Shown: one piece after another, positions 37,557 through 48,342 of the stretch | Numbering within the stretch: position 1 is the first letter of the stretch | Layout of the letters: every line of letters begins with the position of its first letter | DNA from: Aquilaria yunnanensis | Taxonomy: Eukaryota > Streptophyta > Magnoliopsida > Malvales > Thymelaeaceae | Direction: 5' to 3' | DNA length: 64,000 bases | Assembly: GCA_039654915.1 (NCBI GenBank) | Contig: CM077599.1 | Location: 69,160,001-69,224,000 of the forward strand | Notes under the pieces: generated by a model | Database searches by the model: none | What the model was told of the DNA's origin: nothing | Seen by the model: only the letters and a program-made list of their open reading frames with translations | Translations under genes and position numbers: made by a program

Positions 37557-40474
37557 TGTCGTGCCCTAAACTGCCCCTGGCCCATTTGGGCCTGATTTTT
37601 TTTTTTTTTTAAACATGCAGCGGAAGTTTTCATTACACAGAAGGGGCTTTTAAAACTCACTAAGACTTATGGGCACGAACCCCAGGATACTTATCGGTAC
37701 TAGCTCGTTAAGTTCTTTAATTAAGGTTAAGTTGATGTGCTCTCAGAAACAAGCTAGTGCCTATGTGGATTTCATGTGTTCATTTTCATGGTCTTTACCG
37801 AGCTTAGCCAAGAATATGCATGGCAACTAAAACACCAACTTAAGTTTAAAAACTTATTTTCATGCATATGCTTTGCATGCTTATGCGTTTTGGAGTTCAC
37901 TAGTGCACATAATCACTTAATGCCTTTAAATGCAACTAATGCTTAGGCATGTATTAATTCACATACGTGCATTTAAATTTCTTATTAGCCAAACTTTACA
38001 CAAGCATCCAATTTCATGCTTTTTCTAAGTTTACTTGCATGTTCTTTACTAAATGAGCATACATAGCCAAACATTGCATGCTTTTAACATAGACATGGGC
38101 TTATGGGCCTTTTAGTACTTAACATGCATATGGCCCAAAATTAACCAAGAATAAAATCAAAATTTTTAAGTTCTTATTTAAGCCCAATTTCAACATGCTT
38201 CAAATTTCATGAAAACATAACCCATAAATTCATGCATGGGCCTTGGTAAGTCCACCAAGCAATAAAAATACCCGAAAATGTCCAAGTCCATAATACAAGC
38301 CCAAAGCCAAGTTTTGGCCAAATTTTAGCTAAGTCCATAATTTGGTCACTAAAGTTAGACCAACAAAAACATGCTTAAAAGCAACCCATAAATTCACAAA
38401 GCCATGGAACACAAATTTCCACCTTAATAGACCTTGTTCCCACAATTCTAAGACTTCAAGTCCTGCACAGAAAGTCCACATTTTTTTAGCTTGTTTACAA
38501 GCAGCTTATATACTTAGAATACTTAGAATATTTTGAGCAATACCATACACAAATCCAACCTTAGAATACAGAAAGAGTACTCAAGACTCTTAGCTTGATC
38601 TTTCAAGCAAACCTTTACCTACAAAAGTAGAGTAGGGCGGGTGAGTTATAAAACTCAATAAGGATTCCGTGGCATCCAATGCCTAACTTATGGCCTCCAA
38701 GGCCTAACATATGCCAAGAATGTAATGGCAAAATAATCCTTATTCCTGCAAAGGAAACATAAAGACAAAGAAAACAAAAAGATACATGCATATAGCAATA
38801 ATATCATAATCGGGGGTTAGCATGCACAACAAATCAAAGAAGCACACAAACACACGCCACTTAACACTTTGTTCACAGAAGGGCAGCAAGCATCCCTCAA
38901 GTTTTAGTTCATTAATTTCATATACTTAATGTTTTCGGAGAGCTCACTTAGCATAGGAATTAAGGTGGCCGCCTTAACTCCTAGCCCATAATGCTTGCTT
39001 ACTTAACTTAGCTCATGAGCAAAACAGAATTGCCGAAGCAATAACATAACTTAAGCCCTCTTAGCACTCCTAGGATCACATGGTTCTTTGACCATCACCT
39101 AGGGGCCCGAATACTCACATAAAAAGGCCATGGAATTATACCATGCAATAAAGTGAGTATAGGAATCCTTACCCACAACACCGAAAGCTTTATAAGCTTA
39201 TTTTCCTTCGTTTTCCTTGCTTGTTGACTCTAGAAATTGTTTTCTAGCATAAGAACCAAGATGGGCCGAATTTTATTAGTAACCATTAGATACCAAGAAC
39301 ACTTGGTGATTAACTCAAATAACACAAAATACCAAGAACACTTGGTGTACACTTACAGAACCTCACAGAAGAGGTAAGGCCAATTTCTTGTGCTTGATGT
39401 TCTTCAAGCTTCTTCTTGATTTCTTGCTTCTAATGAAATTAGGAACTCAATCACACAAAGAGCTCCTTGAGTGGAGTTTAAAACCTCCAAGAAATGGAAA
39501 TGGCCAAATTTTCCTCCTTGGTTTTCTTTGAATTCTTCATCTGATTCTTGCTCTTTATGGTCTTAGAGCTTGAATTCAACCAAGAATACTTGGTTTTAAT
39601 TTGAGGAATGATTATTTCTAGCTATGGACGAATATTTGGATGAGAAAAGAGTTGGAAATGTGTTTGGAATGATGAGACTTGGTATGGAAGAAAATGGAGA
39701 GAGAATGAGAGAGTTTGAGAGCAAATGGCTTTGAATGAGTGGAGTGATTATGTTTTAATGTGTGGGAAGGTAATGGCCAGCCATATGGGAAGGAAAATGA
39801 GTGTATAATGTGCTTGGAAGGTGGGAGACAAGATTAAAAGAGATGAAGACTAATTGGAAGACTTTTGGGTAAGTTTGGTAGAAAAAGTCAAAAGTAGGTG
39901 AAGAAAGAATCCAAGGTAATGATTAAGGGTGGGAGGTGGATTAAAATAATAGGAAATTAATAATGTGTTTGAAATGAGTGGGAGACAAGATTTAATGGAT
40001 GGAAGACTAATTGGAAGACTTTTGTGTAAGTTTGGTAGAAAAAGTCAAAAGTAGGTGAAGAAAGAATCCAAGGTAATGATTAAGGGTGGGAGGTGGATTA
40101 AAATAATAGGATTTGGAGGAAGGTGACATAAAATATTGGGAATTGGAGGGGCATGGTTGGCTAAGGCATCCAAAGCCATTAAAATGGCATAATTCCCCCT
40201 TTAGTCCTCCAACTTTCTAAATTTGGGCAATTGAGCTCAACCACTAAAAATCCCTTTGTTCAATTTAGTCCCTCATCTTTAAAAACCACCATTTTCATTA
40301 CTATTTCTCTTGGCCTAAGCCAAGCTTATTTTTAAGACGTTCAACACTCAATTATGCACATGCCATATTGTCTTCTCAATTTAATTGAGCTAAATTCCCG
40401 ATTAAGGAAAAATTCTTATGCTCCAAATCCATTTAACCCGGGACCTAATCACTTTGGATTGTCCGGGCATTACA
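37557..40474 (-). repeat. Tekay 3' LTR (left copy), 2918 bp
   Basis: TGTCGTGCCC to GGGCATTACA on plus; on the coding strand it starts TGTAATGCCC and ends GGGCACGACA. It carries a 157 bp tandem duplication at 39821-40110. The frame 38342-38536 is identical in the other LTR and is not a gene. Confidence 0.97.
39821..40110. repeat. 157 bp tandem duplication inside the Tekay LTR
   Basis: GTGGGAGACAAGATT begins at 39821 and again at 39978. Each copy runs through GACTAATTGGAAGACTTTTG, CAAAAGTAGGTGAAGAAAG and GTGGATTAAAATAATAGG. The same structure is at 47689-47978 in the other LTR, while the older solo LTR at 888-3489 has one copy. Confidence 0.9.
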
Positions 40475-40490
40475 ACACTCCCCTCCTTAA
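40475..40490 (-). other. Tekay polypurine tract
   Basis: On minus AAGGAGGGGAGTGT directly precedes the LTR start TGTAATGCCC. Confidence 0.9.
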
Positions 40491-45424: not shown

Positions 45425-48342
45425 TGTCGTGCCCTAAACTGCCCCTGGCCCATTTGGGCCTGATTTTTTTTTTTTTTTAAACATGCAGCGGAAGTTTTCA
45501 TTACACAGAAGGGGCTTTTAAAACTCACTAAGACTTATGGGCACGAACCCCAGGATACTTATCGGTACTAGCTCGTTAAGTTCTTTAATTAAGGTTAAGT
45601 TGATGTGCTCTCAGAAACAAGCTAGTGCCTATGTGGATTTCATGTGTTCATTTTCATGGTCTTTACCGAGCTTAGCCAAGAATATGCATGGCAACTAAAA
45701 CACCAACTTAAGTTTAAAAACTTATTTTCATGCATATGCTTTGCATGCTTATGCGTTTTGGAGTTCACTAGTGCACATAATCACTTAATGCCTTTAAATG
45801 CAACTAATGCTTAGGCATGTATTAATTCACATACATGCATTTAAATTTCTTATTAGCCAAACTTTACACAAGCATCCAATTTCATGCTTTTTCTAAGTTT
45901 ACTTGCATGTTCTTTACTAAATGAGCATACATAGCCAAACATTGCATGCTTTTAACATAGACATGGGCTTATGGGCCTTTTAGTACTTAACATGCATATG
46001 GCCCAAAATTAACCAAGAATAAAATCAAAATTTTTAAGTTCTTATTTAAGCCCAATTTCAACATGCTTCAAATTTCATGAAAACATAACCCATAAATTCA
46101 TGCATGGGCCTTGGTAAGTCCACCAAGCAATAAAAATACCCGAAAATGTCCAAGTCCATAATACAAGCCCAAAGCCAAGTTTTGGCCAAATTTTAGCTAA
46201 GTCCATAATTTGGTCACTAAAGTTAGACCAACAAAAACATGCTTAAAAGCAACCCATAAATTCACAAAGCCATGGAACACAAATTTCCACCTTAATAGAC
46301 CTTGTTCCCACAATTCTAAGACTTCAAGTCCTGCACAGAAAGTCCACATTTTTTTAGCTTGTTTACAAGCAGCTTATATACTTAGAATACTTAGAATATT
46401 TTGAGCAATACCATACACAAATCCAACCTTAGAATACAGAAAGAGTACTCAAGACTCTTAGCTTGATCTTTCAAGCAAACCTTTACCTACAAAAGTAGAG
46501 TAGGGCGGGTGAGTTATAAAACTCAATAAGGATTCCGTGGCATCCAATGCCTAACTTATGGCCTCCAAGGCCTAACATATGCCAAGAATGTAATGGCAAA
46601 ATAATCCTTATTCCTGCAAAGGAAACATAAAGACAAAGAAAACAAAAAGATACATGCATATAGCAATAATATCATAATCGGGGGTTAGCATGCACAACAA
46701 ATCAAAGAAGCACACAAACACACGCCACTTAACACTTTGTTCACAGAAGGGCAGCAAGCATCCCTCAAGTTTTAGTTCATTAATTTCATATACTTAATGT
46801 TTTCGGAGAGCTCACTTAGCATAGGAATTAAGGTGGCCGCCTTAACTCCTAGCCCATAATGCTTGCTTACTTAACTTAGCTCATGAGCAAAACAGAATTG
46901 CCGAAGCAATAACATAACTTAAGCCCTCTTAGCACTCCTAGGATCACATGGTTCTTTGACCATCACCTAGGGGCCCGAATACTCACATAAAAAGGCCATG
47001 GAATTATACCATGCAATAAAGTGAGTATAGGAATCCTTACCCACAACACCGAAAGCTTTATAAGCTTATTTTCCTTCGTTTTCCTTGCTTGTTGACTCTA
47101 GAAATTGTTTTCTAGCATAAGAACCAAGATGGGCCGAATTTTATTAGTAACCATTAGATACCAAGAACACTTGGTGATTAACTCAAATAACACAAAATAC
47201 CAAGAACACTTGGTGTACACTTACAGAACCTCACAGAAGAGGTAAGGCCAATTTCTTGTGCTTGATGTTCTTCAAGCTTCTTCTTGATTTCTTGCTTCTA
47301 ATGAAATTAGGAACTCAATCACACAAAGAGCTCCTTGAGTGGAGTTTAAAACCTCCAAGAAATGGAAATGGCCAAATTTTCCTCCTTGGTTTTCTTTGAA
47401 TTCTTCATCTGATTCTTGCTCTTTATGGTCTTAGAGCTTGAATTCAACCAAGAATACTTGGTTTTAATTTGAGGAATGATTATTTCTAGCTATGGACGAA
47501 TATTTGGATGAGAAAAGAGTTGGAAATGTGTTTGGAATGATGAGACTTGGTATGGAAGAAAATGGAGAGAGAATGAGAGAGTTTGAGAGCAAATGGCTTT
47601 GAATGAGTGGAGTGATTATGTTTTAATGTGTGGGAAGGTAATGGCCAGCCCTATGGGAAGGAAAATGAGTGTATAATGTGCTTGGAAGGTGGGAGACAAG
47701 ATTAAAAGAGATGAAGACTAATTGGAAGACTTTTGGGTAAGTTTGGTAGAAAAAGTCAAAAGTAGGTGAAGAAAGAATCCAAGGTAATGATTAAGGGTGG
47801 GAGGTGGATTAAAATAATAGGAAATTAATATTGTGTTTGAAATGAGTGGGAGACAAGATTTAATGGATGGAAGACTAATTGGAAGACTTTTGTGTAAGTT
47901 TGGTAGAAAAAGTCAAAAGTAGGTGAAGAAAGAATCCAAGGTAATGATTAAGGGTGGGAGGTGGATTAAAATAATAGGATTTGGAGGAAGGTGACATAAA
48001 ATATTGGGAATTGGAAGGGCATGGCTGGCTAAGGCATCCAAAGCCATTAAAATGGCATAATTCCCCCTTTAGTCCTCCAACTTTCTAAATTTGGGCAATT
48101 GAGCCCAACCACTAAAAATCCCTTTGTTCAATTTAGTCCCTCATCTTTAAAAACCACCATTTTCATTACTATTTCTCTTGGCCTAAGCCAAGCTTATTTT
48201 TAAGACGTTCAACACTCAATTATGCACATGCCATATTGTCTTCTCAATTTAATTGAGCTAAATTCCCGATTAAGGAAAAATTCTTATGCTCCAAATCCAT
48301 TTAACCCGGGACCTAATCACTTTGGATTGTCCGGGCATTACA
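45425..48342 (-). repeat. Tekay 5' LTR (right copy), 2918 bp
   Basis: Same length as the left copy, with six substitutions and no indels seen. Contains the 157 bp duplication at 47689-47978 and supplies the promoter for the minus-strand transcript. Confidence 0.97.

What the first reader, a model, noticed from the sequence alone, without database searches (positions are those of the whole stretch)
37557..48342. A recently inserted chromovirus that lacks the N-terminal half of its capsid domain
The LTRs are nearly identical and the target duplication is perfect, yet Gag is split into two ORFs that overlap as ATGA. The segment normally running from FxGTxxPxxAEDW to HWW is missing between them: the acidic N-terminal ORF ends KVEEQ and the next begins MRWPEFEQVF. 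The decayed gypsy-2 copy at 16577-16894 still has that segment (PSFDGLGDAKEVEDLL...SLWWDDM). A defective but recently mobile element suggests it was packaged by Gag supplied in trans. Alternatively the deletion happened after insertion.
Basis: partly seen in the sequence, partly recalled or inferred. Interest (0 to 1): 0.75.

Follow-up and report, generated by a model that had tools for sequence, protein, structure and literature searches.

The report
One retrotransposon copy with private gag deletion
A young plant retrotransposon copy has lost 199 bases of the gene for its particle shell; nearly all close relatives examined in the same genome still have them, so this looks like ordinary damage to one copy and not a deleted lineage that spread.

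Summary
The element is a minus-strand Ty3/gypsy chromovirus: two 2918-bp LTRs differing at 6 sites, target duplication CTAAA. Its Gag lacks the N-terminal part of the capsid domain. The host genome (842 Mb) holds a large, young family of sisters. Of 40 scored places (845 candidates), 39 of 39 other copies carry an extra 199 nt (200 in one) where this copy has none; so do 6 of 7 further copies found through their LTRs. The seventh has a different, larger gag deletion. In a sister read through, the segment is in frame and encodes the missing capsid half. The cut lies at 44709/44708, 31 nt upstream of the ATGA; KVEEQ ends an 11-residue out-of-frame tail. The junction is blunt, without microhomology, and not GT-AG. 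The copy has 6 private internal substitutions (5.1 expected since insertion) and one LTR change that may predate insertion, so the deletion shows almost no independent history. It most likely arose after insertion, otherwise in the last reverse transcription. Mobilisation of a deleted lineage is not supported, though the exact genome-wide junction scan did not complete.

The parts
45425..48342 (-). 5' LTR, 2918 bp
   Evidence: 6 substitutions against its partner; best pieces of sister LTRs 98.0-99.4% identical to the 3' LTR
37557..40474 (-). 3' LTR, 2918 bp
37552..37556 (.). target site duplication CTAAA, left copy
48343..48347 (.). target site duplication CTAAA, right copy
45409..45420 (-). 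primer binding site TGGTATCAGAGC, 4 nt inside the 5' LTR end
   Evidence: read; initiator Met tRNA by comparison with chromoviruses in PMC3605345 (passages) and from recall, not tested
40478..40488 (-). polypurine tract AAGGAGGGGAG, 3 nt from the 3' LTR
   Evidence: read from sequence
44674..45321 (-). ORF1, 215 aa: N-terminal Gag up to the deletion, then an 11-residue frameshifted tail
44708..44709 (-). deletion junction: 199 nt that sisters carry are absent between these two bases
40487..44677 (-). ORF2, 1396 aa: C-terminal part of capsid, zinc knuckle, protease, RT, RNase H, integrase, chromodomain-like end
   Evidence: Pfam, (zinc knuckle and chromodomain below their cut-offs)
43835..43837 (-). 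protease active-site codon: Asn (NTG) here, Asp (DTG) in 29 of 29 sister loci; the changed base is 43837

Best explanation
This is one member of a recently amplified Tekay-like chromovirus family. It inserted, presumably full-length, through the family's normal Gag, and then lost 199 bp by repair of a DNA break, which removed the first part of the capsid domain and shifted the frame. Shown: the segment is present in 45 of 46 other copies read at that place (the 46th has a different, larger deletion), and the deleted copy has almost no private history older than its insertion. Inferred: that the loss came after insertion and by end joining.
For: 39 of 39 other scored copies carry the segment, 199 nt apart in 38 and 200 in one. 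Of the 29 sister loci held, 23 were measured exactly between edge words (22, L029): 22 of 199 nt and one of 200; the other 6 by coarser word spacing. Six of 7 LTR-selected copies with gag at the expected place carry it too. Sisters lie on all eight large contigs. In the 8 of 10 sisters where the target duplication could be read clearly, the 5 bases differ from one sister to the next. Private internal substitutions are 6 (3 in gag-protease against 29 loci; 3 in pol against 10 sisters) against 5.1 expected since insertion from the LTR divergence. Only 1 LTR site is shared by both window LTRs and absent from 10 LTR sequences of 6 sisters. The junction is blunt, with no microhomology and no splice-site ends, as end joining can give.
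Against: Nothing dates the deletion itself: one event cannot be placed before or after integration from sequence alone. Only 40 of 845 gag candidates were scored and the exact junction scan did not complete, so another copy with this junction is unlikely but not excluded. Small deletions by illegitimate recombination in plant LTR elements are reported to be flanked by microhomology (PMC1940013, passages), which is absent here. In the related copy at C5:11.37 Mb a different gag deletion goes with LTRs identical over 2548 sites, so very young copies, perhaps newly integrated ones, can carry such losses.
Confidence: 0.6

Rival explanations
1. The 199 nt were lost during the last reverse transcription, when the enzyme skipped along or between templates inside a particle made by intact sister Gag; the deleted DNA then integrated. 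Gag was then supplied by the parent, without any deleted lineage.
For: The private substitutions fit changes since insertion, so the deletion could date exactly from the insertion cycle. A related copy at C5:11.37 Mb has a different gag deletion with 7-bp microhomology and LTRs identical over 2548 sites. Abnormal template switching in plant LTR elements has been proposed, for complex insertions (PMC1950507, passages).
Against: No microhomology at the junction, which a template jump often uses (recalled).
Confidence: 0.31
2. A gag-deleted lineage is mobilised in trans by full-length sisters, as BARE2 is by BARE1.
For: The family is young and abundant, so helper Gag would be available. Precedent: BARE2 cannot make Gag and is packaged in BARE1 particles (PMC3735527, passages).
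Against: 0 of 46 other copies read at the place share the junction. A copy with the same junction should have matched the 701-nt query in one piece and outscored the sisters, yet only the window's own copy did (how the tool's first look ranks candidates is not stated, so this is inference). Almost no private pre-insertion substitutions.
Confidence: 0.04
3. The gap is an assembly error.
For: The family is highly repeated and near-identical; no reads were available.
Against: A mis-join would most simply copy a sister and so restore the segment. The copy has its own substitutions on both sides of the junction (45835 on one side, 44519 on the other), both LTRs and a matching target duplication.
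Confidence: 0.04

Closest known systems
Tekay-clade chromoviruses of plants (for example Bongo1-3 of beet, PMC3605345, passages)
   Same: LTRs of about 2.5-3.0 kb, 5-bp target duplication, Met-tRNA-type primer site near the LTR, purine tract at the 3' LTR, chromodomain-like integrase end upstream of that tract; in the sister read through, Gag runs on into protease in one frame
   Different: This copy has the frame broken by a 199-nt deletion seen in no sister; clade placement was not tested with a tree
BARE2 of barley (PMC3735527, passages)
   Same: An LTR element that cannot make working Gag while close relatives can
   Different: BARE2's deletion is conserved over a subfamily; here it was seen in 1 of 47 copies read at that place (this one; 45 have the segment, one has another deletion). 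BARE2 is Copia, this is Gypsy
Deletion decay of plant LTR retrotransposons (rice survey, PMC1940013, passages)
   Same: Copies lose internal DNA piecemeal after insertion
   Different: That process is described with microhomology at the junctions; this junction has none

Membership tests
Plant chromovirus (Ty3/gypsy) | Gypsy gene order: protease, RT, RNase H, integrase | tested here: met
   Pfam matches in that order (the integrase core itself is below its cut-off, its zinc-binding and SH3-like parts are above)
Plant chromovirus (Ty3/gypsy) | Chromodomain at the C-terminus of integrase | tested here: inconclusive
   PF00385 at residues 1339-1382, 21.5 bits against a cut-off of 25.1
Plant chromovirus (Ty3/gypsy) | gag and pol in one continuous frame | tested here: not met
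   Not met by this copy, because of the deletion. In 17 of 29 sister loci the frame stays open through the stretch fetched, which ends within pol
Tekay clade | Placement by RT or Gag-Pol phylogeny | not tested
   No named reference elements were aligned; the name rests on LTR length and chromodomain position compared with PMC3605345
BARE2-like trans-mobilised gag-less subfamily | Same gag lesion shared by many copies at different sites | tested here: not met
   0 of 46 other copies read at the place share it; exact genome-wide scan not answered
BARE2-like trans-mobilised gag-less subfamily | RNA packaged in particles of a relative | not testable with these tools
   Needs particle purification

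The most novel reading that the evidence does not exclude
The deletion was already in the packaged RNA: this insertion is the product of a gag-deleted source copy mobilised once or a few times by intact sisters, and further copies with the same junction lie among the roughly 800 unscored candidates.
Probability: 0.04. Interest if true: 0.4.

Novelty: new member of a known kind. Interest (0 to 1): 0.12.

Why it matters
It matters little as biology: a single damaged copy in a young, abundant retrotransposon family. It is a useful caution: young LTRs plus a broken gene do not show mobilisation in trans until the same lesion is seen at several insertion sites. The family itself, with LTR pairs that differ at 0 to 13 sites in ten sisters, is a recent burst in which to measure how fast internal deletions arise.

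Tried and rejected
Retrotransposed splice product (intron loss): rejected. The missing segment begins GG and ends AA and the junction is unambiguous.

Missing half encoded elsewhere in the element: rejected. The three same-strand frames across the junction do not encode it, no ATG-started ORF of 60 aa or more lies wholly inside either LTR, and sisters carry it at the junction.

Homologues outside the genome: ORF1 alone found none at E 0.001; scans of viral and bacterial/archaeal contigs gave none. Of 122 Gag-Pol relatives (the 120 listed of 7940, and 2), 52 align to the retained capsid part at E 0.001, and by eye 47 of these have the N-terminal part directly upstream. Five do not: P0055 and P0064 start at or after that point, P0020 and P0022 look mis-joined there, and P0010 keeps only part of it.

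Structure prediction of a sister capsid piece without an alignment gave mean pLDDT 40 and was not used. A sequence search of the PDB with sister Gag gave nothing relevant.

Full report
What is there. The finding is a minus-strand Ty3/gypsy element. Its LTRs are 37557-40474 and 45425-48342, 2918 bp each, with 6 substitutions and no indels between them, flanked by a perfect CTAAA duplication. It is nested in an older retroelement: with the flanks joined, an RT sequence reads on across the insertion point in one frame, though with stop codons (by eye). Inside are ORF1 (44674-45321, 215 aa) and ORF2 (40487-44677, 1396 aa), overlapping as ATGA. ORF2 has protease, RT, RNase H, integrase and a chromodomain match below its cut-off, but its Gag part starts within the capsid: PF03732 is matched from position 28 of 97 and PF19259 from 77-78 of 198.

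The family in the same genome. The window is C7:69160001-69224000 of an 842-Mb assembly. A 701-nt gag query drew 845 candidates, of which 40 were scored: the window's own copy in one piece, and 39 others each in two pieces, split between query bases 392 and 393. From the printed coordinates the two pieces are 199 nt apart in 38 of the 39 and 200 nt apart in one (C1:31515860). Of the 29 sister loci held, exact edge words gave the length in 23: 22 of 199 nt and one (L026) of 200 (22; L029, which the script turned the wrong way). In the other 6 an edge word was not found, and a coarser pair of words shows the same spacing. In a sister read through, the segment is in frame and encodes the stretch from the FxG motif to WW and slightly beyond, the part missing here. 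In 17 of 29 loci the frame stays open through the stretch fetched; 11 have a stop before its end and one (L029) was not read.

An independent sample. A search with the U3 end of the LTR (40 of 2337 candidates scored) listed, besides this element's own pair (spacing 7868), ten pairs spaced 8063-8087 and one spaced 7166. Four of the ten are copies already counted. I read gag at the expected offset for the other 7 pairs and for 13 of 16 single hits; three singles (C297, C4:26.7 Mb, C3:89.2 Mb) were not read. The 13 singles had no gag there (solo LTRs, 3' LTRs or decayed copies) and were dropped. Of the 7 pairs, 6 carry the 199- or 200-nt segment and 1 (C5:11.37 Mb, L071/L085) has a different gag deletion of about 0.9 kb with the 7-bp microhomology GATGGGC. 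So 45 of 46 other copies read at this place have the segment, and 0 of 46 share this junction. The exact genome-wide junction scan was asked 18 times and never answered, and about 800 gag candidates were not scored. A copy sharing the junction should have matched the 701-nt query in one piece and outscored the sisters, so its absence from the 40 scored is informative, but how the first look ranks candidates is not stated.

The junction. The cut is between window 44709 and 44708, 31 nt upstream of the ATGA. The absent piece is 66 codons plus one base, which explains the split frame: the last 11 residues of ORF1 (VLGGLLKVEEQ) are retained capsid DNA read out of frame, the first codon spanning the junction. 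The piece begins GG and ends AA; the breakpoint cannot be slid either way, so there is no microhomology and no splice signature.

When it happened. At each of the six LTR differences one window LTR agrees with the 10 complete LTR sequences from 6 sisters (at one site two of the ten have a gap) and the other is changed: four changes lie in the 5' LTR and two in the 3' LTR. Only one LTR site is shared by both window LTRs and absent from those ten. LTRs of the other four sisters fetched, and two single LTRs, did not span the whole query and were left out of these two counts. Private internal substitutions are 3 in gag-protease against 29 sister loci and 3 in pol against 10 sisters, a smaller set that may overstate privacy. 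The LTR divergence predicts 5.1 since insertion over the 4950 internal bases. The deleted form therefore shows almost no life of its own before this insertion. With the rice rate of 1.3e-8 per site per year (used in PMC1940013, passages) the insertion is about 79,000 years old; that rate is not calibrated for this host. Ten sisters have 13, 0, 2, 0, 2, 7, 0, 1, 9 and 3 substitutions between their LTRs (in L006, L007 and L014 the LTR ends were not in the compared stretch), so this copy is of ordinary age in its family. One private change hits the protease active site (DTG in 29 of 29 sister loci, NTG here), a second lesion of the kind expected after insertion.

Reading. The deletion is private to this copy on the evidence available. 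A loss after insertion by end joining is the best account (0.6). A loss in the last reverse transcription (0.31) would leave the same traces and would mean that the particle was made by the parent's or sisters' Gag, without a deleted lineage. A mobilised deleted lineage like BARE2 (PMC3735527, passages) would need the shared junction and some private pre-insertion history; neither was seen (0.04).

Known kinds. The element looks like the Tekay clade by LTR length and by a chromodomain-like end upstream of the purine tract (PMC3605345, passages); no tree was made. Literature seen: search listings, and passages of PMC3735527, PMC3605345, PMC1950507 and PMC1940013. I make no claim that anything is absent from print.

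Noticed in passing
G000 C8:71367323/71375391, C7:33994857/34003080, C2:6763733/6771968, C1:48121243/48129149: Four pairs of sister gag copies lie 7.9-8.2 kb apart on the same strand, as expected of LTR-internal-LTR-internal-LTR tandems; the first pair (L004, L005) has an early stop at the same codon, 454.
   Followed up: no
L085-L087 (C5:11367300-11377900): A related copy has another gag deletion (about 0.9 kb, 7-bp microhomology GATGGGC) although its LTRs are identical over 2548 sites; its 3' LTR matches only to position 2527 of 2918. 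Whether other copies share that junction could not be asked.
   Followed up: partly
P0055 and P0097 (Xanthoceras sorbifolium): Protein clusters of 142 and 191 members with incomplete capsids: P0055 starts just before the point where this ORF2 starts; P0097 keeps the beginning of the capsid and lacks much of the rest (by eye).
   Followed up: no
window 43837: Protease active-site Asp (DTG) changed to Asn (NTG) by a private G-to-A change; 29 of 29 sister loci have DTG.
   Followed up: yes
window 930-3443: Pieces of a related LTR (65-73% identical, one short piece 84%) lie between parts of an opposite-strand chromovirus pol (197-563 and 3940-4750): probably an older nested insertion.
   Followed up: no
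window 39821-40111 and 47689-47979: Two copies of a repeat spaced 157 bp in each LTR; LTR length in sisters varies from 2765 to about 3.1 kb, as one to three units would give, though units were not aligned one by one.
   Followed up: partly
[quoted passage not shown]
   Followed up: no
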